Shown here: piece after piece, positions 33,035 to 53,079 of the stretch
Position numbering within the stretch: the first letter of the stretch is position 1
How the letters are laid out: every line of letters starts with the position of its first letter
DNA from: a virus
Strand: one strand, 5' to 3'
Virus record (IMG/VR): IMGVR_UViG_3300009168_000011
Span: 1-60,720 of that record
Length of the DNA: 60,720 nt
The notes under the pieces: model-generated
Told to the model about the DNA's origin: nothing
Database searches by the model: none
Seen by the model: only the letters and a program-made list of their open reading frames with translations
Translations under genes and position numbers: made by a program

Positions 33035-35353
33035 CTACTGCCTAGGCGGCGAGAAGTTGTCCGTGATCGGAGCCTCGCTCCCCATCAGCGACTGGCCTGA
33101 CGGGCTCGGCCCGCCGGGACTGACTGGAGTAGGCGGCACCGGTCCCGCCTGCGGAGCCATCTGGCCGGTCGCCTGCGCCGCCATCGCGTCCTGTGCCAAC
33201 CGCATGCGGATAACATCCAAGGGGGGCACGACGCTATCGGTGTCGATGTCGAGCGCCTTGGCGCTTTCCCTCAGGAGCGCTGCGCGACCCTCGACCCCGA
33301 CGATCTGCATGTCGACCGGGTTGGCGGTGGCGGCGAGGAACTCGGTGCGGCGAAGCTGGGCGCTCTCCTTGGCAACCAGTGACGAGGCTCCACGGGCGAT
33401 CACCTGCACGTCGCCCTTTAGCGCGGGGTCGAGTGCATAGCGCATGTTGTACTGGTAGAGCCTCTCAAGCAGGGGGCCCAGTACGTTGCTGTCGATCCCC
33501 GCGACCACCTGCTTGATCACCCGGCTGGCGTTGTTCATCAGCATGCTGAGACCGCTCGCTGTGCGACCGGCCCCGCCTGCGTCGCCGACGAGATATTTGG
33601 GCAGGCCCGAATACTCGTCGGCGAGGTTGGAGAAGAACTCGAACACCCGCATCAGTTCGTTGACGCGGCTGTCGGGCTGGAAGAACTCCATCGGTTTCTG
33701 GTTGGTCCCGAACGGGTCGGTGGTGACCTGCCAGATGCGCCACGGGATGAGGCTGGTGATGTTCTCGCCTGACGCAAGGCGGTCGGTGTTGATGACGACC
33801 TGCGGCCCGGATGCTATGGAGGCTTTGTTGACCACTGCCCGAGCGAGGGCATTGGTGATTGACTGGGAGGGTGCAACCAAGTCATGGACCGAACGTCCCC
33901 AGAAGCTGTCCGGCACGTCCTCGTACGAAGCCCGATAGTAGGGGCGGCGATAGAGTGGGTCGCCGTTGAGCACCGCCTTGATCACGTATGTCCCGATGAT
34001 CCAGACCTCCGCCTCGTACTCCTTGGCTACGTCCGGGACCTCACCTTCGGACAGGCCGAAATCGCGAAGCATCTGCCCCGACACGCAGCCAAAAAACTGT
34101 AGCGCGTCGATCCGGGTATCGGCAGGAGCGTTGCCCTCGCGCCCGCCGTGGGTGCCGGTGGCGACCCCCGGCAGTCCCTTGGCGCTGGCAATGGGCGAGG
34201 CAGCGTAGCTGGTCCAGTCCGACAGGCCGCCGCGACCGTGGTCTTCGAGGACCAGCTTGATCGCGCCGTTGTCGTAGCCCGGCACATCCAAGAGTTCGGT
34301 CAAGTGCCGTCTGGAAAGACGGTGCTTCTCAATGATGTAGCCGTCGTTGGGGTGCTTGGCTCCGGGTGACGGCCAGACCATGGAAGGATCGACCCGCTCG
34401 AACTCAACGACCAGCTGGACCTCGACAGTTGGGGCTCCGGGGGTCGGACCGGAGGAGGTCGCTTGGCTGGCTTGGGCGGGGCCGGACGGGGAGCCGATGT
34501 CGTTGGCGGCAACGGCGGGGAGTTGCTGCGGCTTGTAGGTCAGCTTCGGTTTGCGGCGCAGGACGGGGCCCTTCAGTATGGCTGCCGGGTAGATGGTGAT
34601 GTCGTCGATGAAGGCGGCGACCGCCTCCAGCCAGCCGCCGTCGAGTAGCTGGTCCTCCATCTTGTCGGCCATCTTGCCAGCGGCATCGCGGGCGAACGCC
34701 TTGACCCTCGCGTCCTTCAGTTCGCGGAGGGTCTTGATCAGGGACTGCTCCTGATCGGGGTTAAGCGGGGTGCCCGCGATCATGGCGTCGCGGATCACCC
34801 CAGCTGCTTGGATGATGGCCTGCTCGTCCGCTTCAGGGGGGACGTCCGGAACGGGCGATGGGGCCAAGGTCCAAGGTCGGTCGACGCCAGTGGCCAAGAG
34901 GATGTCGCGCAGCCAGCTGGAGGCGGCACGGCATTTGACACTGGTCAGGTTCATGTAGACTTCAGAGCCGCCCATCTTCCTGATCTCGGAGAGCTTGCTC
35001 TGGGAGTATACCCCTCGTCGAGCCAAGAGGGCCGAGGCCATCCGGTCGTCAATGCCTTGGCTTGATCGGGCTGAGTAGGCGGCTGTGAAAGCAGATCGGA
35101 CGTGCGCGGCAAGGCTGGAGATGAACGGCTGGGTCTGTCGAAGCTGGGCGGCACGGCGGGCCTCCTCTGCTAGAGTTGCACCTAGGGATTTCGCAGTCAC
35201 CAGCCCATTGCTGATGACGACGGTGGAGCGGGGAGTGATCGCGGCAGGGACTTCGATTGGAAGTCCCGTAGGGGACAGGCCACGCTCACGATTGGCCGGG
35301 TCATTGGTACGACCGGGGGGCGTGAATGGCGGGCGGACTGGGGTTGACGCCAT
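33035..35353 (-). CDS. Portal protein, P22-like
   Basis: A 772-residue protein, similar in length to P22-type portals. It has a helical N-terminal wing, a central region with F-F-Q-P-D-S-R-V-N-E-L-M and E-Y-S-G-L-P-K-Y-L-V-G, the G-G-A-G-R-T-A-S-G-L-S-M-L-M segment that marks the stem and clip of podovirus portals, and a disordered Pro/Gln-rich C-terminus. It would form the dodecameric ring for DNA entry. The upstream 92 bp separates it from a divergent small membrane protein gene and should contain its promoter, though I see no strong one. Confidence 0.88.
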   Translation of the reverse strand: MASTPVRPPFTPPGRTNDPANRERGLSPTGLPIEVPAAITPRSTVVISNGLVTAKSLGATLAEEARRAAQLRQTQPFISSLAAHVRSAFTAAYSARSSQGIDDRMASALLARRGVYSQSKLSEIRKMGGSEVYMNLTSVKCRAASSWLRDILLATGVDRPWTLAPSPVPDVPPEADEQAIIQAAGVIRDAMIAGTPLNPDQEQSLIKTLRELKDARVKAFARDAAGKMADKMEDQLLDGGWLEAVAAFIDDITIYPAAILKGPVLRRKPKLTYKPQQLPAVAANDIGSPSGPAQASQATSSGPTPGAPTVEVQLVVEFERVDPSMVWPSPGAKHPNDGYIIEKHRLSRRHLTELLDVPGYDNGAIKLVLEDHGRGGLSDWTSYAASPIASAKGLPGVATGTHGGREGNAPADTRIDALQFFGCVSGQMLRDFGLSEGEVPDVAKEYEAEVWIIGTYVIKAVLNGDPLYRRPYYRASYEDVPDSFWGRSVHDLVAPSQSITNALARAVVNKASIASGPQVVINTDRLASGENITSLIPWRIWQVTTDPFGTNQKPMEFFQPDSRVNELMRVFEFFSNLADEYSGLPKYLVGDAGGAGRTASGLSMLMNNASRVIKQVVAGIDSNVLGPLLERLYQYNMRYALDPALKGDVQVIARGASSLVAKESAQLRRTEFLAATANPVDMQIVGVEGRAALLRESAKALDIDTDSVVPPLDVIRMRLAQDAMAAQATGQMAPQAGPVPPTPVSPGGPSPSGQSLMGSEAPITDNFSPPRQ

Positions 35354-38489: not shown

Positions 38490-38518
38490 TTGACACGCCT
38501 GACACATTAGTCTATGCT
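38490..38518 (+). promoter_or_regulatory. Sigma70-type promoter of the MoxR-VWA operon
   Basis: TTGACA (38490-38495), 17-bp spacer containing CCTGACAC, TATGCT (38513-38518). The start site would fall near 38525, exactly at the first leader hairpin. Confidence 0.65.
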
Positions 38519-38602: not shown

Positions 38603-39622
38603 ATGCGCATTTCCGAAATCGAAGCCCTGCTTCCGACCCTGTTCCACGCCAACATTCCCGTCTACCTGCGCGGCGATCCCGGCGTCGGCAAGACCGAGAT
38701 GGCGATTGCCGCTGCCGTCGATATCGGCGCGGAGGTGATCTACTTCCACGCTCCCACGATGAACCCCGAGGACCTCGGCGTGCCCGACATGAGCGCCAAG
38801 GAACTGACCTTCAAGGTCAACTCCAGCATGCCGGTCTACGGCTCCAAGTGGGACAAGGCGGTCAACCCCGACGCGCCTGACCTGATCGCGGTGATCATCG
38901 ACGAACTGCCGCAGTCCGACCACGGCGTGCAGAAGTCGCTCGCCAACGTCATTCAGGCGAGGGAACTCTACGGCCACAAGATGCTGCCCAACGTCCGCTT
39001 CCTCTCGACCGGCAACCGGGCCGAGAACCGGGCCGGTGCGGGCAAGCTGCTCGGCCACTTCGCCAACCGCTGGTGCTTCCTCGACGTCGACTTCTTCATC
39101 GACGATTTCCTCGACTGGTCGCTCAAGCATCAGGTCCACCCGGTGCTGCGTGCCTTCGCCAAGTTCGATAGCAAGCAGATGAACGAGTACAAGGCCGACC
39201 GCGAGGTCAACCCGACCCCTCGTGCATGGGTCCAGCGCGTTGCGCCGCTGCTCGACGCCGGGCTCCCGGTCAACCTGCTCTACGAGGCCGTCAAGGGCTC
39301 CGTCGGCGAGGGCCCGGCGACCGTGTTCCAGTCGTTCGTGAAGATGGCCAGCCACTTGAACATCGACGCGCTCATGGCCGACCCCAAGGGCTACCCGATG
39401 CCGACCGAGAGCAGCATCCTGTACGTGCTCTCGACCACGCTGGCGATGAAGTCGACGACCAAGAACTTCGCCACCATCATGGAAATCTCGAAGCGCCTGC
39501 CGCCCGAGTTCTCGGTGCTTCTCGTCTTGGAGGCGTCCAAGGTCGAGCCGCGCATCATGTCCACCCCTGCCTATCAGGAGTGGGCGACCGGTCCGGGTGC
39601 CAAGGTGCTCGGCATCTCATGA
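38603..39622 (+). CDS. MoxR-type AAA+ ATPase
   Basis: A 339-residue ATPase preceded by AAGGA. Walker A is G-D-P-G-V-G-K-T at 24-31, Walker B is I-A-V-I-I-D-E-L with D100/E101, and sensor 1 is the Asn in L-S-T-G-N-R near 138. The order and length fit the MoxR branch, whose members act with VWA proteins as chaperone-like machines that insert metals or remodel complexes. Its VWA partner is encoded at 41314 in the same operon. Expression is from promoter 38490-38518 through a structured leader. Identity as an AAA+ ATPase is clear; its target in the infected cell is unknown. Confidence 0.88.
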   Translation: MRISEIEALLPTLFHANIPVYLRGDPGVGKTEMAIAAAVDIGAEVIYFHAPTMNPEDLGVPDMSAKELTFKVNSSMPVYGSKWDKAVNPDAPDLIAVIIDELPQSDHGVQKSLANVIQARELYGHKMLPNVRFLSTGNRAENRAGAGKLLGHFANRWCFLDVDFFIDDFLDWSLKHQVHPVLRAFAKFDSKQMNEYKADREVNPTPRAWVQRVAPLLDAGLPVNLLYEAVKGSVGEGPATVFQSFVKMASHLNIDALMADPKGYPMPTESSILYVLSTTLAMKSTTKNFATIMEISKRLPPEFSVLLVLEASKVEPRIMSTPAYQEWATGPGAKVLGIS

Positions 39623-39699
39623 TCGAGGATGACGAGAGCACCGTCTACGCCATGATCTTCATGTGGCTGGTGATCGGCTTCCTGATCATCGCCAACTGA
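39619..39699 (+). CDS. 26-residue membrane protein coupled to the ATPase
   Basis: Begins by ATGA overlap with the ATPase stop, so it is probably translated by coupling. An acidic N-terminus (M-I-E-D-D-E-S-T) precedes one hydrophobic helix (M-I-F-M-W-L-V-I-G-F-L-I-I-A). It could tether the ATPase to the membrane or be an independent small membrane protein. Confidence 0.55.
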   Translation: MIEDDESTVYAMIFMWLVIGFLIIAN

Positions 39700-39718
39700 T
39701 TTGCTTTTTAATCAAGTG
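39698..39718 (-). repeat. Seven-copy intergenic element, site 5
   Basis: Read on the - strand: core TTGATTAAAAAGCAA flanked by CAC and ATC. It overlaps the stop codon of the 26-residue gene and is the only copy in this operon with the opposite orientation to transcription. Confidence 0.8.
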
Positions 39719-39741
39719 GGGCGGCGATCCTGCCGCCCCAC
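39716..39741 (+). promoter_or_regulatory. GC-rich hairpin between ATPase and DUF3150-like genes
   Basis: Perfect 10-bp stem GTGGGGCGGC and GCCGCCCCAC with a 6-base loop, touching element site 5. There is no T run, so it is not a standard intrinsic terminator; it may process or protect mRNA. Confidence 0.5.
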
Positions 39742-39759
39742 AAAACCAAGGAAAACAAC

Positions 39760-40632
39760 ATGTCCGATATCACTTTCGCCTCCTCGACCATGCTGCTGTC
39801 GCTCAACATCTCGATCTGGTCCGGCAACAAGCTTGACAAGGGCGAGACCGCCGACGTTCGCTCCCGCACCGGTGCCCGGCAGGGTGCCGTCCGGGTCCAC
39901 AAGTCGCTGCTGCCTGACGCTCAGGAACTGCTCGACCTGCGCCGCCACGCCACCCTCGTCCGCGAGTTCTTCAACGCCCGCACCGCGCCGTGGGCTGGCG
40001 ACATGCGGATCATGCGGTCCGACGCCTACCTCGACTTCTCTCAGGAGTTGGCCGCCCACAAGCGCCACTTCTCGGTGCTGGTCGAGCGGCTGGTCGACGC
40101 CTACGAACTGCGTGTCAACGAGGCCCGCACCCGGCTCGGCACGATGTTCGATCCCGCCGACTACCCCGATGTCCGGGATATCCGCAACGCCCACGGCTTC
40201 GCCGTCCGCGTGGCACCGACCCCGTCCGTCAAGGACTGGCGTCTCGACCTCAACGACGAGGTGATGGGCGACCTGCGCCGTGATCTGGAGGAACAGAGCA
40301 ACTCCGCCATGCAGGGTGCGCTGGCCGACGTGGCGTCACGCATTGCCGAGGTGGCGAAGCGGGCTCACGAGCGCCTGTCCGACCCGTCGGCGATCTTCAG
40401 GGACAGCCTGATCGGCAACATCGACGAACTTGTCGGCCTGCTGCCGATCCTCAACGTCGCCAACGATCCGCAGCTGGACGACCTCGCCACCAACCTCCGC
40501 CTGTCGGTGTTCGGGGTCACTCCCGAGGTGCTCCGTGCCGACCCGCTGGTGCGCCGCGAGAAGGCCACCGAGATGGGCCAGCTTGCCGCCAACGCCGAGG
40601 CGCTGGCCGACCTGTTCGGAGGTGCACGCTGA
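39760..40632 (+). CDS. DUF3150-like partner protein of the MoxR-VWA module
   Basis: A 290-residue helical protein; AAGGA precedes the ATG. It begins with a beta region (S-S-T-M-L-L-S-L-N-I-S-I-W), has a conserved-looking S-L-L-P-D-A-Q-E-L, and continues as long helices (R-R-H-A-T-L-V-R-E-F-F, L-A-A-H-K-R-H-F-S-V-L-V-E-R-L). Phage proteins of this appearance encoded next to MoxR ATPases are annotated DUF3150; I make that match from memory and cannot test it. A structural partner or substrate of the ATPase is the likely role. Confidence 0.6.
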   Translation: MSDITFASSTMLLSLNISIWSGNKLDKGETADVRSRTGARQGAVRVHKSLLPDAQELLDLRRHATLVREFFNARTAPWAGDMRIMRSDAYLDFSQELAAHKRHFSVLVERLVDAYELRVNEARTRLGTMFDPADYPDVRDIRNAHGFAVRVAPTPSVKDWRLDLNDEVMGDLRRDLEEQSNSAMQGALADVASRIAEVAKRAHERLSDPSAIFRDSLIGNIDELVGLLPILNVANDPQLDDLATNLRLSVFGVTPEVLRADPLVRREKATEMGQLAANAEALADLFGGAR

Positions 40633-40964
40633 TGGCCCAGCAAGTGATCGTGCTGCGCAGGGACGGCCACGTCGTCGCCTATCACAGCGACCTGTCAGGT
40701 GGGCTGGAGCAGGCGTTCCAGACTGCGCTGGCTGCCCAGCGCAGGGCCGAGGCGAGGGAGCCCGATGCCAAGTTCGCCCTGTCCATCGAGCCGGTGTCAG
40801 CGGTGAAAACCGTGCAGTACAAGCACGGTGGCAGGTGGCACAACATCGAGGGGCATGGCTGCGCCGACGAGGCGGAGATGCAGGAGTACGTGGACACACT
40901 CAGCAAGTATGGCCCCGGCCTCCGCGTTGCCGATGTCACCACCAACGGGGAGGTCGCGAAGTGA
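40632..40964 (+). CDS. Small protein of the MoxR-VWA operon, function unknown
   Basis: A 110-residue protein that starts by a TGATG overlap with the previous stop. It is alpha/beta (Q-Q-V-I-V-L-R-R-D-G-H-V-V-A-Y, then a long helix, then V-Q-Y-K-H-G-G-R-W-H-N-I-E-G-H). No family is recognised. Confidence 0.75.
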   Translation: MAQQVIVLRRDGHVVAYHSDLSGGLEQAFQTALAAQRRAEAREPDAKFALSIEPVSAVKTVQYKHGGRWHNIEGHGCADEAEMQEYVDTLSKYGPGLRVADVTTNGEVAK

Positions 40965-41137
40965 TGGGCCGGTTCAAGGTCGCCCCGTTCGACAAGGGCT
41001 ATGGCGACGGCAATCGTTTCGATGGCCTGTACGACCCGCGCTACGACTACCAGCCCGATGAGCGTGCCGAGTACCGGCAGGGCTTCGACGCTGGCCGCAA
41101 CGTCAAGCTGGCTGGCCTGTGTGGAGGTGCCCGCTGA
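40964..41137 (+). CDS. 57-residue protein, function unknown
   Basis: Starts by overlap TGATG with the previous gene. It is charged and Tyr/Asp-rich (G-Y-G-D-G-N-R-F-D-G-L-Y-D-P-R-Y-D-Y) with a helical C-terminus (E-Y-R-Q-G-F-D-A-G-R-N). A similar Y-x-Q-G-F-x-x-G end is seen in small phage proteins of unknown role. Confidence 0.7.
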   Translation: MGRFKVAPFDKGYGDGNRFDGLYDPRYDYQPDERAEYRQGFDAGRNVKLAGLCGGAR

Positions 41138-41211
41138 TGCAATGGCACGCCCCGCTGATCGCGTTCGTGGCTCTGTTCGTGGTGATGGCTATTCTTGCCG
41201 TCGCCTCCTGA
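41137..41211 (+). CDS. 24-residue membrane peptide
   Basis: Starts by TGATG overlap. After M-Q-W-H-A-P it is one hydrophobic helix (L-I-A-F-V-A-L-F-V-V-M-A-I-L-A-V-A). It is the third overlapping small gene in a row and is followed by a strong hairpin at 41220-41246. Confidence 0.5.
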   Translation: MQWHAPLIAFVALFVVMAILAVAS

Positions 41212-41219
41212 CGTACACC

Positions 41220-41246
41220 GTGTAGGCTGGCCCACCCAGCCTACAC
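41220..41246 (+). terminator. Strong hairpin before the VWA gene promoter (possible attenuating terminator)
   Basis: Perfect 11-bp stem GTGTAGGCTGG and CCAGCCTACAC with loop CCCAC. No T run follows, so termination would be weak or factor-dependent. A new promoter starts eight bases later, which supports a unit boundary here. Confidence 0.4.
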
Positions 41247-41253
41247 GTGAGCG

Positions 41254-41282
41254 TTGACACGGCCCTGACAACCTGCTATACC
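41254..41282 (+). promoter_or_regulatory. Sigma70-type promoter of the VWA gene
   Basis: TTGACA (41254-41259), 17-bp spacer with CCCTGACA, TATACC (41277-41282), followed directly by ATGACACATGG. It resembles promoter 38490-38518 both in boxes and in the CTGACA spacer motif. Confidence 0.65.
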
Positions 41283-41313
41283 ATGACACATGGTCAACCA
41301 AAGGAACTACCCG

Positions 41314-42534
41314 ATGACGCACCCGATCCTTCAGCTTCCGATCCTTCACTCCATCTCCGCCGCCGAGGTGATCAGCCAAGCCAAGGCACGCCTGATCCTG
41401 ACGCAACCGTTCTTCGGCAGCCTCGCCTGCTCGATGGACTTCGTCGAGGAACCCGGCCTCAACCCTCCGACCATGGCCACTGACGGCGAGAAGGTTTACT
41501 ACCATCCGCAGTTCGTGCTGACCCACACGGCGGACGAGAACCTGTTCGTGGTGTGCCATGAAATCATGCACGTGGCGCTGGTCCACATGTTCCGGATGCG
41601 GACCCGCGACATGCGGCTCGGCAACATCGCCGCCGACTACGCCATCAACGAAATCCTGTGTGTCGAGGGCATCGGCAGCTTCCCCAAGGGTGGCTTACGC
41701 GACAGCGACATCTACAAGCGTGGCGGCGGCACGATGGAGGGCATCTACTCGCTGCTCCTGCAGGAGAACCCGCCTCCGCCTCCGGGTGGCGGCGGCAAGC
41801 CGGGCGACGGTGAGCCGGGCGATGGCTTGCCCGAACTGATGGACCGCCTGCTCGAACCCGGTGCGGGCAAGAGCGAGAGCGAGGTCGCAGCCAAGGAAGC
41901 CGAGGTCCGCCTGAAGGTGGCCGGTGCAATGCAGGCAGCGGAGATGCGTGGCACCCTGCCGGGTAGCCTCAAGCGCCTGCTCAAGGACGCGCTCGACGTC
42001 AAGACGCCGTGGCAGAACGTGCTGCGCCGCTTCTTCACGGAGCGCAGCGATGAGTACCGCTCGTGGGCACGGCCCAACCGCCGGTTCGCCAGTCAAGGCA
42101 TCTACCTGCCCAGCCCGGACGGGGTGCGCATGGGCATTGCCTTCTGCGGCACCGATGCGTCGGGCTCGATCAACCAGAAGATGTTCGACATCTTCGCCGC
42201 CGAGATGAACAAGGTGGTCGCCGACACTATGCCCAAGAAGGTGGTCGTCGGGGTGTTCGACACCCGCATCACGGATGAAATCGAGTTCGATCCATCCGAG
42301 GGTGATCGCATTGTGCTCACGGCCAAGGCAGGGGGCGGCACCAACTTCGCCCCGGTCATGGACTGGTGCCAGAGCAGGGACGAGGACCCGGCGTGCCTGA
42401 TCATGCTGACCGACGGTCACTGCGGCCAGTTCGGCAACGAGCCCAGCTGCCCGGTGCTGTGGGCGGTGCTCGGGTCGACCGGCAACAAGAAGTTCAAGCC
42501 GCCCTTCGGCGAGGTCATCTGGATCGAGGGGTAA
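41314..42534 (+). CDS. Putative metallopeptidase-VWA protein, MoxR partner
   Basis: A 406-residue protein; AAAGGA precedes the ATG at 41314, so the upstream ATG at 41290 is less likely. The N-terminal half is a DUF2201-like putative metallopeptidase with H82-E-I-M-H86. A Pro/Gly linker lies at 152-175. The C-terminal half is a VWA-like domain with a complete MIDAS: D281-A-S-G-S285, T343 in G-G-T-N-F, and D367 in M-L-T-D-G. A MoxR ATPase with such a VWA protein is a known pair in bacteria and some phages; the ATPase may load or release the metal-bound VWA protein. It has its own promoter, so its level can differ from the ATPase. Confidence 0.85.
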   Translation: MTHPILQLPILHSISAAEVISQAKARLILTQPFFGSLACSMDFVEEPGLNPPTMATDGEKVYYHPQFVLTHTADENLFVVCHEIMHVALVHMFRMRTRDMRLGNIAADYAINEILCVEGIGSFPKGGLRDSDIYKRGGGTMEGIYSLLLQENPPPPPGGGGKPGDGEPGDGLPELMDRLLEPGAGKSESEVAAKEAEVRLKVAGAMQAAEMRGTLPGSLKRLLKDALDVKTPWQNVLRRFFTERSDEYRSWARPNRRFASQGIYLPSPDGVRMGIAFCGTDASGSINQKMFDIFAAEMNKVVADTMPKKVVVGVFDTRITDEIEFDPSEGDRIVLTAKAGGGTNFAPVMDWCQSRDEDPACLIMLTDGHCGQFGNEPSCPVLWAVLGSTGNKKFKPPFGEVIWIEG

Positions 42535-42541
42535 CATGGAC

Positions 42542-42567
42542 GTGGCCGGTGCGGGGGCACCGGCCAC
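42542..42567 (+). promoter_or_regulatory. GC-rich hairpin upstream of element site 6
   Basis: Perfect 11-bp stem GTGGCCGGTGC and GCACCGGCCAC with loop GGGG. No T run follows; the element begins three bases later. Same arrangement (hairpin, then element, then ribosome binding site) as in the ATPase leader. Confidence 0.5.
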
Positions 42568-42570
42568 TGC

Positions 42571-42591
42571 CACTTGATTAAAAACCAAATG
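42571..42591 (+). repeat. Seven-copy intergenic element, site 6
   Basis: Core TTGATTAAAAACCAA, flanked by CAC and ATG. The ribosome binding site GGAG of the next gene begins at its last base. Confidence 0.8.
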
Positions 42592-42602
42592 GAGTTCGTG
42601 CA

Positions 42603-43232
42603 ATGGTCAAGCTGCATACCATCCCCGGCGTTCACGCCGTCACCACCTACACGCTGGTCCCTCGGGACCTGACGCCGACCACCCGCAATCTCGTGGTAGC
42701 TGCGCTGTCACGTGGCTACGTGGTTGGGCACCCCACCCACTCGGTCACCTATCAGGTGATCAGCGCACTCAGCAACGGGCTCGGCCAGAAGTTCGAGCGG
42801 CGCTTCGCCATGCCGGTCTTCGGCTTCCCGTCTGACGTTAGCACCCGCGAGTACCCGATTACCGACGTGCACTATCCGTTCGGCATGCTGGAGTTGGTCA
42901 AGCCGGAACTTGACGACCTGCGCAAGGAACTGGCGGTGACCTACTCGCTGATCACGGCCAAGACCAAGCTGGCGGTGCCGGTACGCTCCCGGTTCGTGCC
43001 CGACCTGTCAACCCCGGAAGCGAAGACCTGCGGCAGGTTTGCCGGGATCAAGCCCGAAGCGCCCCGCCTGATCGCCTTCGTCGGCACGATGGTGGCGCGT
43101 GCCGACCCGGCGTTCCGCCACGACATGCGGCTGATGCGCGAGGTGATCCAGATGGGCGAGGCGGTGCCGTACCTCGTCAAGCACAAGGTCAACCCGACCG
43201 CCAAGCCTGCCGCCAAGAAGGGAAAGAAGTGA
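42603..43232 (+). CDS. MoxR-VWA operon protein, function unknown
   Basis: A 209-residue protein with GGAG eight bases before the ATG. It is alpha/beta with a Lys-rich tail (A-A-K-K-G-K-K) and a helical region before it (F-R-H-D-M-R-L-M-R-E-V-I-Q-M-G). No family is recognised. Its leader holds a hairpin and element site 6, so it may be controlled separately from the VWA gene. Confidence 0.75.
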   Translation: MVKLHTIPGVHAVTTYTLVPRDLTPTTRNLVVAALSRGYVVGHPTHSVTYQVISALSNGLGQKFERRFAMPVFGFPSDVSTREYPITDVHYPFGMLELVKPELDDLRKELAVTYSLITAKTKLAVPVRSRFVPDLSTPEAKTCGRFAGIKPEAPRLIAFVGTMVARADPAFRHDMRLMREVIQMGEAVPYLVKHKVNPTAKPAAKKGKK

Positions 43233-44044
43233 TGGTCCGGGTAGTGGGGACAGTGGCTCCGCCGCCATGGGTGGCGACAGGCGGACGCGACCCGGACAAC
43301 GCACGTCTCGGGCTCGTCGAGCGGACCATCATCGGGGTCAACAATGTCTACTTCGACATCGGCACCTCGCTGAAGGACCGGTTCTGGGCGGACCACAACG
43401 CGACCGACGTGATCAACCATGCGCTGGCCGAGAACTATCGGCTGCATGGGGTGCAGCCGCTGCGTGGCGAGGGCTACCTGCCCGAGGCATGGATGACACC
43501 GATCCGGCAGGCGCAGATCGTCGTCGTCCCGTCCCGCCCACGTGGTCTCACTCTGCCGGGTGGCGACAACCCGATGTTCGGCTCGCTGACGACCCCGCCC
43601 AACCGTGGGCAGTGGGTTATCGAGAGCGGGCTGCACGCTGCCAACCTGCGGCTGACCGGCATCGTGCCCGACGCTGGCAAGGACACGGCGGTGCTGCTGG
43701 TGAACAGCAACTCGCCGGGTCCGAGCGGCGAGGTCGCATCCCTGCTCGCTACGCTGGTGGGGTGGGACCGGGACCGCAGTGCGATGATGAAGGCGGTGCG
43801 GGCGGTGCTCACCCGGTGCGACGGGGACTTGGCGCTGGCACTGACCGTGATGCCGGACCTGACACGGTTCCTGCCGCACGAGGCGTACCCGCTGCCGCCG
43901 CAACGACTGCTCGACCTGATCAAGCAGGAGCAGGCGCAACAGGCCATGATCGGGGTCGACATGGGCGCATACCTGCCAGCCACCATACGGCTGGCCAAGC
44001 ATGACGAAACAACCAACGCAAAGAAGGGAACACCACGTGGCTAA
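43232..44044 (+). CDS. MoxR-VWA operon protein, function unknown
   Basis: A 270-residue protein that starts by TGATG overlap; a GTG one codon earlier is possible. It has an alpha/beta N-terminus with I-I-G-V-N-N-V-Y-F-D-I-G-T, a central strand pair (D-T-A-V-L-L-V-N-S-N-S-P-G-P-S-G-E-V) and a helical C-terminus ending in a Lys-rich stretch. No family is recognised. Confidence 0.75.
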   Translation: MVRVVGTVAPPPWVATGGRDPDNARLGLVERTIIGVNNVYFDIGTSLKDRFWADHNATDVINHALAENYRLHGVQPLRGEGYLPEAWMTPIRQAQIVVVPSRPRGLTLPGGDNPMFGSLTTPPNRGQWVIESGLHAANLRLTGIVPDAGKDTAVLLVNSNSPGPSGEVASLLATLVGWDRDRSAMMKAVRAVLTRCDGDLALALTVMPDLTRFLPHEAYPLPPQRLLDLIKQEQAQQAMIGVDMGAYLPATIRLAKHDETTNAKKGTPRG

Positions 44045-44759
44045 CGCATTTACCAAGAGCGAGAAGGACCGGACATCTGGCCGGGCGCGCACCCTCTACA
44101 ACGAGATGCAGACTGTCCTGCAGGACGATACGTGGGGGGCGATGGACCCCGACGACATCGCCAAGCGGCTGGTCACCATGAACTGCCACTACCATGGCTT
44201 CAACGAACTCTCGCTGAAGCGCATGCCCGAGGTGGCACAGCACGAGGTCACCGGCATCCGCATCCTGACCGACAACAACAAGTCGCCACTGGTGCGTCCG
44301 TTGCGCAGGCCGATGAAGGTGCCGGTGGTGCTGCTGGTAGCCAACGCCAAGCGCAACAACTCTCGGTACGATGACCTGTTCGGCAACCTGTCGACCGGCA
44401 AGTCGCCCAACGCGCCGTTCCTCCTGCCGTCACCGGCGGGGGAGATGATCGGCCCGTCGTACCAGATGCTGATGAACCTGCAGCGGGAGGTGTCCGACTT
44501 GATTACCGACCAGTCCAAGATGGCCAACATGCTGCGCCATATCCTGCCCGCCTCGAAGTCGGTGCGCGCGGTGTGCTCGGTGTTCCCGGTGATCCGTCAC
44601 TTCCTGTCGCCGACGATGGCTCAGGAAATTGAGGGTGTCGACCTGACCAAGGCGCGTGGTGATGTGCATAGCATATCACGTACCGTTGACATGGGCGAGA
44701 TGATCCAGCTATCACTGAAGGTGGAGGCATACATGAAACACCGTGTGCCCACGAGTTAA
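44037..44759 (+). CDS. MoxR-VWA operon protein, function unknown
   Basis: A 240-residue protein. I prefer the GTG at 44037, preceded by AAGGGAA, to the ATG at 44001, which has no ribosome binding site. It begins A-N-A-F-T-K-S-E-K-D-R-T-S. It is helical with a central beta region (V-P-V-V-L-L-V-A-N-A-K-R-N-N-S-R) and a long helix near L-N-L-Q-R-E-V-S-D-L-I. No family is recognised. Confidence 0.75.
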   Translation: MANAFTKSEKDRTSGRARTLYNEMQTVLQDDTWGAMDPDDIAKRLVTMNCHYHGFNELSLKRMPEVAQHEVTGIRILTDNNKSPLVRPLRRPMKVPVVLLVANAKRNNSRYDDLFGNLSTGKSPNAPFLLPSPAGEMIGPSYQMLMNLQREVSDLITDQSKMANMLRHILPASKSVRAVCSVFPVIRHFLSPTMAQEIEGVDLTKARGDVHSISRTVDMGEMIQLSLKVEAYMKHRVPTS

Positions 44760-44770
44760 GGAGCAGTACG

Positions 44771-45043
44771 ATGTACTCGATTGAACAGAACGTGCCGATC
44801 CCGGTGATGCGGCATGGCGGTTCGGCGTTCCCGCTGTCGGAACTGTCGACGGGCGAGAGCTTCTTCGTCCCCGGCGGGGAGGATATCGTCAAGACGCGGG
44901 CCAAGCTGACCGCCGCCATCGCCAACCATTACCGCCGCAAGAAATCGCAGCGCCGGTTCACGGTGCAGACCCAGATCGAGGACGGGGTGAAAGGCATGCG
45001 TGTGTGGTGCCTGTCCAACCCGGACGAGAAGGACGAAGATTAG
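44771..45043 (+). CDS. Small conserved-looking phage protein, function unknown
   Basis: A 90-residue protein with AAGGAG upstream. It begins Y-S-I-E-Q-N-V-P-I-P, followed by L-S-E-L-S-T-G-E-S-F-F-V-P, a basic helix (H-Y-R-R-K-K-S-Q-R-R-F-T-V) and R-V-W-C-L-S-N-P. I have seen this form in phage genomes without an assigned role; a nucleic acid-binding regulator is possible. Confidence 0.75.
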   Translation: MYSIEQNVPIPVMRHGGSAFPLSELSTGESFFVPGGEDIVKTRAKLTAAIANHYRRKKSQRRFTVQTQIEDGVKGMRVWCLSNPDEKDED

Positions 45044-45221
45044 TTGGTGCCCGATTGGAACTTAGCCGGAGGTACTGCACCCCGGTGACACAAGCACTGG
45101 TTGCGTAGCGGTTGAGGGCTGCGTGCAAGTCATAACCCTCACTCGCAAGGACACGTCAACGGCCCGTCAGTCTGGGCACCCGGAACGTAGGTGCGGGGCG
45201 AAGCCAGTGAAGCAGCATACC

Positions 45222-45252
45222 GGGAGGCGGGGAAGTCCACGCCCCGCCTCCC
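45222..45252 (+). promoter_or_regulatory. Perfect 11-bp hairpin in a 243-bp gap
   Basis: Arms GGGAGGCGGGG and CCCCGCCTCCC with a 9-base loop AAGTCCACG and no T run. It lies in the non-coding stretch 45044-45286. The rest of that stretch has short imperfect stems but no tRNA and no convincing gene. Confidence 0.5.
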
Positions 45253-45286
45253 AATTCATCAGTGGTCAGACATGGGGTATATTCAA

Positions 45287-45517
45287 ATGGTTGGATCAAT
45301 CACGGTTAGTCACCGGGTCAAGGAGGGCGAGGCCAATGCCGAGACCCTGCAGACCATCAACGTCGCCGACGTGCTGTGCATCAGCTTCAGGTCAGACAAG
45401 AACATGGCCCGCTACCGTCGCCTCGTTTACTCGATCAACAAGCAGGCCGAGTTCCGGTATCGCACGATCCGTAGCGATGGCGGCATGTGGGAACTGCTGA
45501 TCCTTCGACTGAAGTAG
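45287..45517 (+). CDS. Small protein, function unknown
   Basis: A 76-residue protein when started at the ATG at 45287 (GGGGT upstream); the frame is open further upstream to 45191, but that part runs through the 45222 hairpin and has unusual composition. The product has mixed beta strands (I-T-V-S-H-R-V, D-V-L-C-I-S-F, W-E-L-L-I-L-R-L-K). No family is recognised. Confidence 0.6.
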   Translation: MVGSITVSHRVKEGEANAETLQTINVADVLCISFRSDKNMARYRRLVYSINKQAEFRYRTIRSDGGMWELLILRLK

Positions 45518-45538
45518 GTCAACGAAAGGGGTAGTGCA

Positions 45539-46225
45539 ATGTCAGGAATGAGAGCAGCGGCGAAGGCCCACTACGAGGCTTCGCTTCAGGATAATATCCC
45601 CGGTGCGGTGCACCGGGAAGCGATGGGCCGGTCGAGCATAGACATACCATGCGCGGCATGCCTGAAGCTGGTCGAGGATGCCTATCACTCGGCCAACCGG
45701 ATGCCGCCGCCCAAGGTGGCGAAGTCATTGAAAGCGCGCGGCTGGTACATCGGGAACAGCGCACGTAAACATATCTGTCCCGCACATTTAAGGGGTCAAA
45801 AGGAAATGCCTGAGTATCTGAAGCCGGTTCCGTCCGGCAGCGGCAGCGTGATTGCCATGGTGGTTGCTGATCAGGCCGCTACCGACAAGGCGAAGCAGGC
45901 CAAGCGGCTGGCCTACGACTGGCTGGTCGAGGCGTTCGACGTGGCAGCCGGGCAGTACAAGGATGCGTCGATTACCGATGCGTCCATCGCCAAGGACGTG
46001 GGCCTCAGTGAGAAGGTCATCAGTGACCTGCGCGAGGAGTTCTTCGGCCCGATGAAGGCACCGTCCGAGGTGCGTGCGCTGATCGACGAGGTGCGCGGTG
46101 CCGAGGAGCGGGGCAAGGCGATAGTCAACGAGTTCAACGTCAAGATGTCGGGCCTGCACAAGGACATCGCCGACATCGACAAGAAGATCGACGCGCTCGT
46201 GCTGAAGCGGGGGTGGGCGCTATGA
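45539..46225 (+). CDS. Zinc-finger-like protein with helical C-terminus
   Basis: A 228-residue protein; AAAGGGG precedes the ATG. Residues 38-82 contain C-A-A-C and C-P-A-H spaced by about 40 residues, a possible zinc site. Residues 110-228 are helical, with a possible DNA-binding segment (I-A-K-D-V-G-L-S-E-K-V-I-S-D-L-R) and a final coiled coil. It may be a DNA-binding regulator; that is inference. Confidence 0.65.
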   Translation: MSGMRAAAKAHYEASLQDNIPGAVHREAMGRSSIDIPCAACLKLVEDAYHSANRMPPPKVAKSLKARGWYIGNSARKHICPAHLRGQKEMPEYLKPVPSGSGSVIAMVVADQAATDKAKQAKRLAYDWLVEAFDVAAGQYKDASITDASIAKDVGLSEKVISDLREEFFGPMKAPSEVRALIDEVRGAEERGKAIVNEFNVKMSGLHKDIADIDKKIDALVLKRGWAL

Positions 46226-46476
46226 CCGACATCGAGAAGATGGACTTGGCCGAGACCACGGACCTGATGCAGGGCGTGGCGGCTGCGCTGGACGAGTGCC
46301 TCAACGGCAAGGTGGTGCCCAAGAAGGTGGCGTTCGTCCTGCTGCTGGCCAACTTCGGCGAGACCGACGGGGGCCGGGTCAACTATGTCAGCAACGCCAA
46401 CCGTGACGACATCGTGCCCATGATGAAGGGGCTGATCGACCGCTGGGAAAATGGGGAGGTGGTACATGAGCAATAG
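46222..46476 (+). CDS. Small acidic helical protein, function unknown
   Basis: An 84-residue protein starting by ATGA overlap. It has two helices and the stretch N-F-G-E-T-D-G-G-R-V-N-Y-V-S-N-A, a form common in unassigned phage proteins. It overlaps the next gene by 11 bases. Confidence 0.7.
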   Translation: MTDIEKMDLAETTDLMQGVAAALDECLNGKVVPKKVAFVLLLANFGETDGGRVNYVSNANRDDIVPMMKGLIDRWENGEVVHEQ

Positions 46477-46630
46477 CTACATCAGGATCATCGGCGACGA
46501 ACTGTGGCTCGACGGGCAGAAGGTCGGCACCCTCCACACGGAGGGTGTCACGGCGTCTGTCGCCGCCGCAGTCCGCACGCACCTGACCAAGACGCTGGCC
46601 GACGAGCCGGTTAGGAAGTGGAGACCATGA
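46466..46630 (+). CDS. 54-residue protein, function unknown
   Basis: Preceded by GGAGG in the end of the previous gene. The start (S-Y-I-R-I-I-G-D-E-L-W-L-D-G-Q-K-V-G-T-L) forms strands, and the rest is one helix. It overlaps both neighbours. Confidence 0.65.
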   Translation: MSNSYIRIIGDELWLDGQKVGTLHTEGVTASVAAAVRTHLTKTLADEPVRKWRP

Positions 46631-46791
46631 CCGAGGATCAGTTTGAAGCCCTGCTCGATCTGATCGGCGCGATTGCGTCTGAGCGGGTGGGAGAAGCCGT
46701 TCACCAGCGCCGTTCCAAGTACGGTGCCAGCATGGCAGTCGACGCAGCACGCGCCGCGTTCAACCTGCCACCGAAGGAACCCGAAGCATGA
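46627..46791 (+). CDS. 54-residue helical protein, function unknown
   Basis: Starts by ATGA overlap. It is two amphipathic helices (F-E-A-L-L-D-L-I-G-A-I-A, and A-V-D-A-A-R-A-A-F-N-L). No family is recognised. Confidence 0.6.
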   Translation: MTEDQFEALLDLIGAIASERVGEAVHQRRSKYGASMAVDAARAAFNLPPKEPEA

Positions 46792-46961
46792 ACACGCAAC
46801 GACCGTTCATTGACACGCGCCGCCCGTCGCAGCGTTATGACTTCCACCGCATGCCAGTGGAAGGGAGTTATGCAATGCGCCACTCGAACGACCGGAGGAC
46901 TGCCGTCGCTGCGGCGGCGGTCATCCTCGTCCTCGTTGCCGTGCTGTTGTGGGTGTACTGA
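46788..46961 (+). CDS. Small single-pass membrane protein with two possible starts
   Basis: The full form has 57 residues (GAAGGA upstream). A second ATG at 46875 has GGGAG seven bases before it and would give a 28-residue form consisting of the membrane helix alone (A-V-I-L-V-L-V-A-V-L-L-W-V-Y) after a basic R-H-S-N-D-R-R. Two products from one gene are a known device for holin and antiholin pairs, so this gene deserves attention as a lysis candidate. Starts by ATGA overlap. Confidence 0.5.
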   Translation: MNTQRPFIDTRRPSQRYDFHRMPVEGSYAMRHSNDRRTAVAAAAVILVLVAVLLWVY

Positions 46962-47203
46962 TGGCCAAGGAAATCTGGACCCACGAGCAGGTCGACAACC
47001 TCAACGAGTATCAGGTGGCGGGTGTCATGCACCCGTTCACCTGCGGCAACGAGCACCCCGGCAACAAGGTGCTGGTGGCGACGGTGCGTGGCTGGATTTG
47101 TACCGGCTGCGACTGGACGCAGGATTGGGCGCACCCGTTCATGATCAGCGGGGCTGCGGTCGAAGCCGCCCGCAAGGCGATGAAGGGAGAGACCGATGCG
47201 TGA
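46961..47203 (+). CDS. Small Cys/His protein, possible zinc ribbon
   Basis: An 80-residue protein starting by TGATG overlap. F-T-C-G-N-E-H and W-I-C-T-G-C-D-W form a C/H...C-x-x-C pattern that could bind zinc. The C-terminus is helical. No family is recognised. Confidence 0.7.
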   Translation: MAKEIWTHEQVDNLNEYQVAGVMHPFTCGNEHPGNKVLVATVRGWICTGCDWTQDWAHPFMISGAAVEAARKAMKGETDA

Positions 47204-47291
47204 GGCGTTCTTCCAGCGTGCGGTCGGGCTCATGCTACTGGCCTACATCGCCGTCATCCTGACCATCATGCTGTTTGAAGGGGGCGTCTGA
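47196..47291 (+). CDS. 31-residue membrane peptide
   Basis: Overlaps the previous gene by eight bases; GGGAGA lies upstream. One helix (V-G-L-M-L-L-A-Y-I-A-V-I-L-T-I-M-L-F) fills most of the sequence. Confidence 0.5.
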   Translation: MREAFFQRAVGLMLLAYIAVILTIMLFEGGV

Positions 47292-47569
47292 TGACTGAAC
47301 AACAGGACAGCGATGGGTTGAGGGAAGCAATTGCCACGCTTGAGCAGATAGGTTTCCTAAGCCTTGGCAATAAGGTCAGGCAAGCCGCCGCCACCATCGA
47401 AGCCATGTCTCGCCAGCTTGTCGAGGCGCGGGGGGCGCTGCGTAAGATTACTGATGAGCAACATGAGCCCGGCTGCAAGTATGATTTCTGCCCGCTGCCT
47501 GAATGTCCAACCTGTCCATCGGCAGCCGACATCGCCCACAAAGCCCTTGGAGGATCGGACCATGCCTAG
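47291..47569 (+). CDS. Small protein with Cys-rich end
   Basis: A 92-residue protein starting by TGATG overlap. A helical first half (L-R-E-A-I-A-T-L-E-Q-I) is followed by C-K-Y-D-F-C-P-L-P-E-C-P-T-C, four Cys that may bind zinc. No family is recognised. Confidence 0.7.
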   Translation: MTEQQDSDGLREAIATLEQIGFLSLGNKVRQAAATIEAMSRQLVEARGALRKITDEQHEPGCKYDFCPLPECPTCPSAADIAHKALGGSDHA

Positions 47570-47684
47570 CAGGCCACCCAAACCACACCAGCGTCCGCCG
47601 GGCTATGGCTTCTGCCTTGTCATCGCCTTCACCATCTTCCTCGCCACCGCTGCGGGTATCTGGATCATCGCCACAACCAACTGA
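47562..47684 (+). CDS. 40-residue membrane protein
   Basis: Overlaps the previous gene by eight bases (GGAGG upstream). A basic Pro-rich N-terminus (P-S-R-P-P-K-P-H-Q-R) precedes one membrane helix (F-C-L-V-I-A-F-T-I-F-L-A-T-A-A-G-I-W-I-I). Orientation by the positive-inside rule places the N-terminus in the cytoplasm. Confidence 0.55.
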   Translation: MPSRPPKPHQRPPGYGFCLVIAFTIFLATAAGIWIIATTN

Positions 47685-47700
47685 AGAAGGGGTAACAATC

Positions 47701-47997
47701 GTGCATCACCAATACCATCACCTGACACCGAACATGAAGCGAGCGCTGGCCCGGCTGGGCGAGGGCCTGAAGTACATCGACATCCGCAGTGGCGCTGCGC
47801 TCCACCGCCGTGGTCTTGCCCGCTGGGATGCGGGAAACTACCGCGCCTACTTCCTGACCGAGACCGGTGCCGACGTGCTGGCTAGGGGCAAGGCGCGGGA
47901 GCGGGTATGCCGCTGGATCGTCACCGAGAAGAAGCACCTCGACCAAGTGACGATTGATGCCGTCATGGAATATGCGGCGTGGGCGACCAGCCAGTGA
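47701..47997 (+). CDS. Winged-helix-like small protein
   Basis: A 98-residue protein with GTG start and AAGGGG upstream. The pattern M-K-R-A-L-A-R-L, a long helix-turn region and Y-F-L-T-E-T-G-A-D-V-L-A-R-G resembles the wing and last helix of MarR-like winged helix proteins (the L-T-x-x-G motif). DNA binding is plausible but unproven. Confidence 0.6.
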   Translation: MHHQYHHLTPNMKRALARLGEGLKYIDIRSGAALHRRGLARWDAGNYRAYFLTETGADVLARGKARERVCRWIVTEKKHLDQVTIDAVMEYAAWATSQ

Positions 47998-48146
47998 ACA
48001 AGGCGGAGCGACAGGCGGAACTGATCAGGCTGCAGCGTCGGCTCGAAAGCTGGCGCAACCTGATCGGTCCGAAGTGGATGCTGCGCTACAAGGCACAGAC
48101 CATCAAGGAATTGATGGACGAGATCGCCAGACTGGAAGCGTCATGA
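47994..48146 (+). CDS. 50-residue basic helical protein
   Basis: GTG start overlapping the previous stop. Almost entirely helical and charged (E-R-Q-A-E-L-I-R-L-Q-R-R-L-E-S-W). No family is recognised. Confidence 0.6.
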   Translation: MNKAERQAELIRLQRRLESWRNLIGPKWMLRYKAQTIKELMDEIARLEAS

Positions 48147-48289
48147 CCGAGGCGGAGGCGGAACGCGCAGCGATCATCCGTCACATGAAGAAGGACATCG
48201 GTTGGCTGGGCGAGGCCACAGCCAACCACGTCCGGCAACTGATCAACGATATCAGGCGGGGTGACCACCTGAAAAAGGGGGACGAGTGA
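48143..48289 (+). CDS. 48-residue helical protein
   Basis: Starts by ATGA overlap. Charged helices (E-A-E-A-E-R-A-A-I-I-R, H-V-R-Q-L-I-N-D-I-R). No family is recognised. Confidence 0.6.
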   Translation: MTEAEAERAAIIRHMKKDIGWLGEATANHVRQLINDIRRGDHLKKGDE

Positions 48290-48465
48290 ACGCGTGTTAC
48301 AATCCATGGTGCGACGGCGTACCCAAGGCACGGAAGTTCGGTGGCAGGTGGACCAATCGCTGGTCGGTCGAGTGCCCGAAGTGCGAGATGCGCGGCCCGG
48401 CAGCGGCGACCGAGGCCATGGCTGTCAAGCTATGGGACGGCGAGGAACAGAAGAAGACGGCATAA
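48286..48465 (+). CDS. Lar-like zinc ribbon protein (possible restriction alleviation)
   Basis: A 59-residue protein with GTG start overlapping the previous stop. The pattern C-Y-N-P-W-C-D-G, W-S-V-E-C-P-K-C-E-M-R-G-P-A, A-M-A-V-K-L-W follows that of Lar-type zinc ribbons (C-x3-C, V-x-C-x2-C-x3-G-P, A-x4-W). Lar of the Rac prophage reduces cutting by type I restriction systems; many phage Lar-like proteins are untested, so this function is an inference. Confidence 0.55.
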   Translation: MNACYNPWCDGVPKARKFGGRWTNRWSVECPKCEMRGPAAATEAMAVKLWDGEEQKKTA

Positions 48466-48473
48466 GGGGGACG

Positions 48474-48884
48474 ATGATGGGTTGGCTGACATGCTACCGT
48501 TGCAAGGAACAGTTCGGCCTCACCAATGAAGTCGAGGAGATGCTGCGCCGGAACCACCAGACTTTCCACTGTCCTTGGGGGCACAGCCAGCACTTCAAGG
48601 AGGGCGAGACCGAGGAACAGAAGCTGCGGCGCGAGGTCAACCAGCTGAAGCAGAACAAGGCGTACCTCGAAGACATGCGACGCAAGGCCGAGGCCCGCGC
48701 CGACCGTGAGCGCAACCGCGCCAACGGCTACAAGGGCCATGCCACCCGCATCAGCAAGCGGGTCAAGAACGGGGTCTGCATATGCTGCAACCGCACGTTC
48801 GCCGACCTCGCCCGGCACATGGCAACCAAGCACCCCACGTTCACGCCGCTCGATGTTGAGCCGGACAAGGCGACGGTGCAGTGA
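48474..48884 (+). CDS. Zinc-binding phage protein with two Cys/His clusters
   Basis: A 136-residue protein preceded by GGGGG. N-terminal C-Y-R-C-K-E-Q-F-G-L-T and F-H-C-P-W-G-H-S-Q form one zinc site; a coiled coil follows (E-E-Q-K-L-R-R-E-V-N-Q-L-K-Q-N); the C-terminus has C-I-C-C-N-R-T-F and L-A-R-H-M-x3-H-P, a C2H2-like finger. I have seen this form often in phages and mobile elements without a proven role. It is the last gene of the + strand accessory operon. Confidence 0.75.
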   Translation: MMGWLTCYRCKEQFGLTNEVEEMLRRNHQTFHCPWGHSQHFKEGETEEQKLRREVNQLKQNKAYLEDMRRKAEARADRERNRANGYKGHATRISKRVKNGVCICCNRTFADLARHMATKHPTFTPLDVEPDKATVQ

Positions 48885-48906
48885 AAATAATTTTCGAGGG
48901 GGGTGC

Positions 48907-48934
48907 TTGACGCCCCCGTATTACCCGTTACACA
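48907..48934 (+). promoter_or_regulatory. Weak promoter-like sequence upstream of the structured region
   Basis: TTGACG (48907-48912), 16-bp spacer, TACACA (48929-48934). The -35 box also lies inside a small hairpin (GGGGGTG and CGCCCCC). Support is modest. Confidence 0.25.
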
Positions 48935-48957
48935 TGATCACAGCCAGCCACTGAACT

Positions 48958-49049
48958 GGTCCCGGACTTCGGTCCGAGACCGACTAGGTGACAGGTCAGG
49001 GACCTCGGTGTTCGGCCTTCATGCTTCGGCATGCAGTGCCAACCCGAGG
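48958..49049 (+). ncRNA. Candidate structured RNA with two UUCG tetraloop hairpins
   Basis: Hairpin 1: GGTC, CGGAC, loop TTCG, GTCCG, GACC with one facing mismatch (48958-48981). Hairpin 2: nested stems CCTCGG/CCGAGG, GGC/GCC and CATGC/GCATG closed by TTCG (49003-49049). Two stems closed by this very stable tetraloop within 92 bases, outside any gene, suggest an RNA that is folded and kept. It could equally be the 3' end of the + strand operon message acting as a barrier. Element site 7 follows. Confidence 0.4.
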
Positions 49050-49064
49050 AACCGCCCTCCCCCT

Positions 49065-49085
49065 CACTTGATTAAAAAGCAAGTA
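49065..49085 (+). repeat. Seven-copy intergenic element, site 7
   Basis: Core TTGATTAAAAAGCAA, flanked by CAC and GTA. It lies at the convergence of the + strand accessory operon and the - strand fibre operon, directly after the stop of the 49087 gene, like site 1. Confidence 0.8.
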
Positions 49086-49086
49086 G

Positions 49087-49479
49087 TCACAGCGGCATGC
49101 TGTCCGGTGGCTCACTCACCACGTCCGGGCCCCCCGCCTCGGGCTCATCCTTCACCCGCCACGGCGCAGTCACTTGGTAGTGAGTGTCGGCGACCTGCTC
49201 CTCGATGCTGGTCGTGATGCGATCCTTCAGCATGTAGATGGTATCGGGAGTGAGCGTCGCCAGCAGCCAGTCGGTCACCCGCCCCGGCGTCATCTCCCTG
49301 ACCACCGCATGCCGCAGCGGATCACCCAGCGGCTGCGTGCCGTAGCGCATCGCCGTTATCCCGCTCACCTCGTCCTTGCCGACCAGTTCCCACGACACGT
49401 CGAGCACGAGGTCACGCTTGCCGTCGACCGCATCCCGGTCGATGGTCAGCCCGGTGATGTTCCACTTGAAATTGATCAT
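49087..49479 (-). CDS. Small protein downstream of tail fibre genes
   Basis: A 130-residue protein with a beta-rich N-terminal half (I-N-F-K-W-N-I-T-G-L, L-V-L-D-V-S-W-E-L-V) and a helical middle; the end is acidic and Pro-rich. Similar proteins follow fibre genes in other podoviruses and are unassigned. It would be the last gene of this operon. Confidence 0.7.
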   Translation of the reverse strand: MINFKWNITGLTIDRDAVDGKRDLVLDVSWELVGKDEVSGITAMRYGTQPLGDPLRHAVVREMTPGRVTDWLLATLTPDTIYMLKDRITTSIEEQVADTHYQVTAPWRVKDEPEAGGPDVVSEPPDSMPL

Positions 49480-49490
49480 GCTCGGTACGC

Positions 49491-52617: not shown

Positions 52618-52661
52618 GGCATAAGGTGTACTGCAATGCCGCCGTCAATGCCAACCCGGAT

Positions 52662-52689: not shown

Positions 52690-52703
52690 GTAACGTAAGG
52701 GGT

Positions 52704-52997: not shown

Positions 52998-53016
52998 CCA
53001 CGAATTAATTTAAGGC

Positions 53017-53045: not shown

Positions 53046-53079
53046 GTGTCCATCAGTTCAACTCAATGGGGGTAAATCA

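What the first reader, a model, noticed from the sequence alone, without database searches (positions are those of the whole stretch)
38603..45043. Phage MoxR-VWA metallopeptidase island with at least six unassigned partners
An AAA+ ATPase and a protein joining an HExxH domain to a VWA domain with full MIDAS are encoded with a DUF3150-like protein, three 200-270-aa proteins of unknown type, and three tiny genes, over 6.4 kb with two own promoters and three copies of the seven-copy element. MoxR-VWA pairs are known in bacteria (RavA-ViaA type) and a few viruses, but their phage role is unclear. The size and separate control suggest a defined machine, possibly for host takeover, virion assembly or defence against the host.
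Basis: partly seen in the sequence, partly recalled or inferred. Interest (0 to 1): 0.78.

Follow-up and report, generated by a model that had tools for sequence, protein, structure and literature searches.

The report
Phage AAA+ motor with peptidase-VWA adaptor

Summary
The pair is real: gene A (38603-39622) is a MoxR-type AAA+ ATPase and gene F (41314-42534) a DUF2201 metallopeptidase-VWA protein with HExxH and complete MIDAS. Homologous pairs occur in hundreds of phages, including N4 gp24/gp25. The pair was described earlier in jumbo phages, where virion assembly was proposed (PMC7824862); for N4-type phages its function is listed as unknown. One of the 'partners', B (39760-40632), belongs: a DUF3150-like protein encoded with A and F in all 18 viral B loci with 5 kb on both sides, and in prophage and plasmid loci, in three gene orders. 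Its confident model (pLDDT 95) matches no solved structure. The machine lies on the strand of DNA polymerase, exonuclease, clamp, ligase and SNF2 helicase; terminase and portal genes lie on the opposite strand in every locus where found. I favour ATP-driven remodelling, perhaps with cleavage, of an early or replication-stage protein; the target is unknown.

The parts
38603..39622 (+). A: MoxR-type AAA+ ATPase, 339 aa
   Evidence: phrog_1297 E 4e-48; Walker A/B, sensor-1 Asn and Arg conserved across 153 homologues; best solved relatives are midasin AAA domains
39760..40632 (+). B: DUF3150-like helical protein, 290 aa; third member of the module
   Evidence: linked to A and F in 18 of 18 complete viral B loci; model pLDDT 95, TM 0.87 to a viral protein named DUF3150, no PDB match at E<=0.001
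41314..42534 (+). F: DUF2201 metallopeptidase domain (HEIMHVALVH) joined to a VWA domain with MIDAS, 406 aa
   Evidence: PF13203 E 6e-51, PF09967 E 3e-21; HExxH in 152 of 157, MIDAS in 155 of 156 homologues; model matches VWA domains incl. MDN1 and NorD, and selecase for the N-part
39619..39699 (+). 26-aa hydrophobic micro-ORF overlapping the stop of A
   Evidence: direct reading; relevance unknown
40632..40964 (+). C: 110 aa, unknown; not linked to the module elsewhere
40964..41137 (+). D: 57 aa, unknown; not linked elsewhere
41137..41211 (+). 24-aa hydrophobic micro-ORF
   Evidence: direct reading
38490..38518 (+). sigma70-like promoter TTGACA-17-TATGCT upstream of A
   Evidence: consensus match only
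41254..41282 (+). promoter-like TTGACA-17-TATACC upstream of F
   Evidence: consensus match only
41212..41255 (+). hairpin between E and F, -28.3 kcal/mol, z -6.6
42542..42567 (+). hairpin after F, before the repeat copy and G, z -4.1
42603..43232 (+). G: 209 aa orphan; not a supported partner
   Evidence: no homologue in phages, viral contigs or 169 loci
43232..44044 (+). H: 270 aa orphan; not a supported partner
44037..44759 (+). I: about 240 aa orphan (GTG start 44037 likely); not a supported partner
44771..45043 (+). J: 90 aa, weak DUF7303 / phrog_7597 match
   Evidence: only weak, scattered matches in the 169 loci

Best explanation
A, B and F form an ATP-driven protein-remodelling machine of the MoxR-VWA kind. 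A forms the AAA+ ring; F sits on it, grips a target through the metal site of its VWA domain and carries a zinc-peptidase domain that may cut the target; B is a helical adaptor that selects the target or couples it to F. It is made in the early/middle phase together with replication genes and acts on a protein of that stage (a phage replication or recombination complex, or a host protein that must be displaced or destroyed), not on the virion. Shown: homology, conserved active-site and MIDAS residues, linkage of A, B and F, position beside replication genes. Inferred from other MoxR-VWA systems: ring, grip and remodelling. Inferred only: adaptor role of B, cleavage, timing and target.
For: Residues: Walker A Lys and sensor-1 Asn kept in all homologues that have these columns; HExxH in 152 of 157, MIDAS in 155 of 156. 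Linkage: A and F beside B in 18 of 18 complete viral B loci and 14 of 17 complete bacterial ones; A beside F in 33 of 34 complete viral F loci. Same order A-small-B-small-F in cyanophage MinM2 and A-B-F on plasmids. Clustering all neighbours, only A, B and F recur widely (108, 81 and 116 of 125 non-redundant loci); the next family reaches 17. Recurrent neighbours are DNA polymerase, primase-helicase, PD-(D/E)XK nuclease, SNF2 helicase, 5'-3' exonuclease, sliding clamp and ligase. The polymerase, exonuclease, SNF2, clamp and ligase hits are on the strand of F; terminase and portal hits are on the opposite strand in all 38 loci that hold them. TM3_14A keeps A-small genes-F just before polA. NorQD shows that the AAA ring drives remodelling through the VWA partner and that MIDAS is needed for target function (PMC13036017, PMC9976466).
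Against: No biochemical or genetic test exists here. Neighbourhood is weak evidence of function: replication genes are among the best conserved phage genes, and the primase family often lies on the other strand (20 of 23). Five homologues have lost HExxH, so cleavage cannot be the general function. B is absent from N4-like loci and from TM3_14A, so it is dispensable. F's VWA domain is short, and I could not test for the pore-binding finger known from NorD.
Confidence: 0.5

Rival explanations
1. Virion-assembly chaperone with processing of structural proteins, as proposed for the homologous pair in jumbo phages and shown in part for p618/p892 of Acidianus two-tailed virus.
For: Published proposal for exactly this domain fusion in group 2.2 jumbo phages (PMC7824862); ATV p618 is a virion component bound by VWA protein p892 (PMC4124505). 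Cyanophage S-TIM61 has the pair near genes annotated as virion structural proteins.
Against: Terminase and portal genes within reach are on the opposite strand in all 38 loci; in the window, TM3_14A and N4 the pair lies in the non-virion arm. Plasmids carry the same triad with no virion genes annotated nearby. The ATV pair is reported as lacking the peptidase domain.
Confidence: 0.22
2. Host takeover or counter-defence: the machine disassembles or cuts a host complex, for instance a defence, repair or transcription complex.
For: Found on phages, prophages and conjugative plasmids, which share the need to establish in a host; MoxR-VWA pairs with a third component occur in conflict systems (PMC7159879).
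Against: No match in PADLOC; none of the known third components (VMAP, iSTAND, FtsH) was seen; no host target identified. It overlaps with the favoured account if the target is a host replication or repair protein.
Confidence: 0.2
3. The whole 6.4 kb, including C-E and G-J, is one machine.
For: Same strand, short gaps, shared repeat element.
Against: C, D, G, H and I lack homologues in 169 related loci and in the syntenic relative; hairpins and repeat copies split the stretch.
Confidence: 0.05

Closest known systems
Escherichia phage N4 gp24/gp25 and other Schitoviridae pairs
   Same: Homologous AAA+ and metallopeptidase-VWA proteins, adjacent, in the non-virion arm; recorded as function unknown (PMC2784036)
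   Different: No B next to the N4 pair; about 22-32% identity; no other N4 protein tested (major capsid, portal, RNA polymerases and others) matches this phage
MoxR with metallopeptidase-fused vWA in group 2.2 jumbo phages (PMC7824862)
   Same: Same domain fusion and pairing
   Different: The passages I read mention no DUF3150 protein; virion assembly was proposed there, which gene position here does not favour
MoxR - DUF3150-like - DUF2201 triads on Burkholderiales and Rhodovastum plasmids and in cyanophage MinM2
   Same: All three members, order A-B-F, 26-38% identity
   Different: Different neighbours; none has G, H or I
NorQ-NorD, RavA-ViaA, midasin (works like these)
   Same: MoxR-clade AAA+ with a VWA/MIDAS partner
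   Different: No RavA-specific C-terminal domain in A; F has a peptidase domain that these partners are not known to have; substrates differ
ATV p618/p892
   Same: Viral MoxR-VWA pair
   Different: Archaeal virus, tail development, reported without the peptidase domain

Membership tests
DUF2201 metallopeptidase-VWA (PF13203 + PF09967) | both domains above curated cut-off | tested here: met
   174 and 76 bits against 23.2 and 26.4
DUF2201 metallopeptidase-VWA (PF13203 + PF09967) | HExxH and MIDAS intact | tested here: met
   H82 E83 H86; D281 S283 S285 T343 D367
DUF2201 metallopeptidase-VWA (PF13203 + PF09967) | peptidase activity | not testable with these tools
   needs purified protein
MoxR AAA+ ATPases | Walker A, Walker B, sensor-1 | tested here: met
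MoxR AAA+ ATPases | curated family score | tested here: inconclusive
   AAA_5 17.3 bits, below its cut-off of 22; phrog_1297 ATPase E 4e-48; profile finds midasin best
MoxR AAA+ ATPases | helix-2 insert and hexamer | not tested
   A was not modelled
DUF3150 (PF11348) | Pfam score of B | tested here: not met
   no hit for B up to E 1; 1 of 8 relatives at E 0.0015
DUF3150 (PF11348) | fold of a protein annotated DUF3150 | tested here: met
   TM 0.87, E 1e-18 to A0A6J7WV52. Hence called DUF3150-like, not DUF3150
RavA-ViaA | RavA C-terminal (LARA) domain | tested here: not met
   not among the Pfam matches of A
MoxR-vWA ternary conflict systems (Kaur et al. 2020) | VMAP, iSTAND, FtsH or beta-propeller third part | tested here: not met
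   B matches none of these by Pfam or fold; no PADLOC match
N4 gp24/gp25-type phage pair | homology of both proteins and adjacency | tested here: met
   E 1e-19 and 6e-44; A-F linkage in 33 of 34 complete viral F loci

The most novel reading that the evidence does not exclude
A ternary machine for which no description was found (MoxR ring, helical adaptor of an unsolved fold, peptidase-VWA grip), shared by phages, prophages and plasmids, sitting in a set slot beside replication genes where two-part and three-part versions replace each other, and acting on replication or host-nucleoid proteins.
Probability: 0.35. Interest if true: 0.72.

Novelty: new variant of a known kind. Interest (0 to 1): 0.52.

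Why it matters
The gp24/gp25-type pair is present in several hundred sequenced phage records and has no established function; one published proposal is virion assembly. The linkage to a third, structurally new protein, the steady placement with replication genes and away from virion genes, and natural variants that lost HExxH turn this into concrete tests: which step fails without it, does B bind A or F, and is the peptidase used. It also corrects a misleading label: the PHROG that covers F is named 'HNH endonuclease'.

Tried and rejected
Viral-contig scans with A, G, H and I as single proteins found no relative, and broad alignments were too diverse for the scan. Near-identity search in phages gave nothing. 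A hidden B in N4-like phages: no profile hit in the N4, nACB1 and Axy04 loci and no hit identified as an N4 protein in the fold search against viral models. N4 membership of this phage: only gp24 and gp25 match among the N4 proteins tested. Defence system: no PADLOC match. HNH endonuclease label of phrog_1314: no HNH domain in F by Pfam, rejected. Intrinsic terminators in the island: counts no higher than in shuffles, so the hairpins are described only as hairpins. Literature on DUF3150: no paper in the library.

Full report
What is there. The window is a phage genome with 123-base terminal direct repeats (1-123 = 60598-60720). Virion genes lie mostly on the minus strand (major head protein 28321-29289, portal-type 33035-35353, terminase 31531-33033, tail and internal proteins); the plus strand carries the replication genes (primase/helicase-like 2194-5274, DNA polymerase A 55344-57353, exonuclease 58405-59172). 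The stretch in question opens the plus-strand arm. Gene A is an AAA+ ATPase with Walker A GDPGVGKT and Walker B IIDE (phrog_1297); its profile finds midasin AAA domains best among solved structures. Gene F joins a DUF2201 metallopeptidase domain to a VWA-like domain, both far above their Pfam cut-offs. Between and after them lie B (290 aa), small genes C, D and two micro-ORFs of 26 and 24 hydrophobic residues, then G, H, I and J.

Which genes belong together. I collected 169 related loci from phages, plasmids, bacterial genomes and viral contigs, built profiles of A, B and F and searched every open frame. A and F flank B in all 18 viral loci found through B with 5 kb on both sides, and in 14 of 17 such bacterial loci; A accompanies F in 33 of 34 viral loci found through F, and B is also there in 17 of them. 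Three orders occur: A-B-F, B-A-F and A-F-B, which is what one expects of a functional unit rather than of a frozen block. Clustering all neighbours shows A, B and F in 108, 81 and 116 of 125 non-redundant loci; the next family reaches 17. These counts are conditioned on the queries, so the cross-counts are the fair ones.

The other named partners fail. C, D, G, H and I have no homologue in any of these loci at E 0.01; G, H and I have none in viral contigs, and G and I none in phage records either. The closest relative I found, Rhizobium phage RHph_TM3_14A, shares portal, head protein, terminase, primase, exonuclease, SNF2 helicase, an internal virion protein and the giant minus-strand gene in much the same order. 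It has A and F in the same slot before DNA polymerase, separated by small genes, and no detectable B, C, D, G, H, I or J. In the window about 13 kb of genes without counterpart lie between F and the polymerase. A quick tree of F places the window with two A-B-F viral loci (support 97) and TM3_14A with an A-F locus elsewhere; if right, the two-part and three-part versions have replaced each other in one slot. One tree by the quick method is modest evidence.

Control. TTGACA-N17-TAT occurs before A (38490) and before F (41254), 3 in the window against 0.11 expected. The seven-copy 21-base element is real (core expected 0.001 times), always between genes, often beside a hairpin, and not confined to this stretch; TM3_14A lacks it in the 50 kb searched. 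With strong hairpins between E and F, after F and between A and B, the stretch is best read as four transcription blocks. No transcript data exist.

How it may work. NorQD, the best studied relative in kind, shows a MoxR ring that twists and stretches a linker in its VWA partner, with MIDAS needed for the target but not for binding the ring (PMC13036017, PMC9976466). In F the MIDAS residues are kept in 155 of 156 homologues and HExxH in 152 of 157; the five that lost HExxH are all in loci with B. I infer that grip and remodelling are the core and that cleavage is usual but not universal. The model of F has a VWA domain matching MDN1 and NorD and an N-terminal part matching selecase, a small zinc peptidase (whole-chain TM scores are low because domains were matched singly). 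The model of B is confident (pLDDT 95), without any PDB match at E 0.001, and matches viral proteins including one named DUF3150 at TM 0.87. B as adaptor is inference.

Where it acts. Recurrent neighbours are replication and recombination genes. Of 158 loci with F, 89 hold a replication-type neighbour and 38 a terminase or portal; all polymerase, exonuclease, SNF2, clamp and ligase hits are on the strand of F, and all terminase and portal hits on the other. This disfavours, but does not exclude, the virion-assembly role proposed for the jumbo-phage pair (PMC7824862). Chromosomal loci L016 and L028 look like prophages by their terminase, clamp and ligase genes, and plasmid triads lie beside partition, conjugation or toprim genes. 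A shared task of foreign replicons is plausible; the target is not known.

Verdict. A new member of a known phage pair, extended here by a third conserved protein for which I found no description; the six-partner machine is not supported.

Noticed in passing
window 41314-42534; phrog_1314: The PHROG covering F and its phage homologues is named 'HNH endonuclease', and RefSeq phage records repeat that name, although Pfam finds only metallopeptidase and VWA domains.
   Followed up: partly
window 5377, 36073, 37018, 38569, 39705, 42574, 49068: Seven copies of a near-palindromic element CAYTTGATTAAAAANCAARTG, between genes and in both orientations, also at convergent gene ends; perhaps an operator or a site for a phage regulator.
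   Followed up: partly
window 5393-14680 (-): 3095-aa protein with partial matches to DarB-like antirestriction proteins and to virion RNA polymerase families; a giant gene stands at the same place in Rhizobium phage TM3_14A.
   Followed up: partly
window 57951-58490: HslV-family peptidase gene (phrog_1040, E 3e-19) next to the exonuclease.
   Followed up: no
window 42600-55300: About 13 kb of genes between F and DNA polymerase, compared with TM3_14A where only about 1.5 kb separates them.
   Followed up: partly
L075, L076, L077, L013, L021: F homologues that lost HExxH: natural peptidase-dead variants, all in loci with B.
   Followed up: partly
window 39619-39699 and 41137-41211: Two micro-ORFs of 26 and 24 residues, each a single hydrophobic segment, overlapping the stop codon of the gene before.
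   Followed up: no
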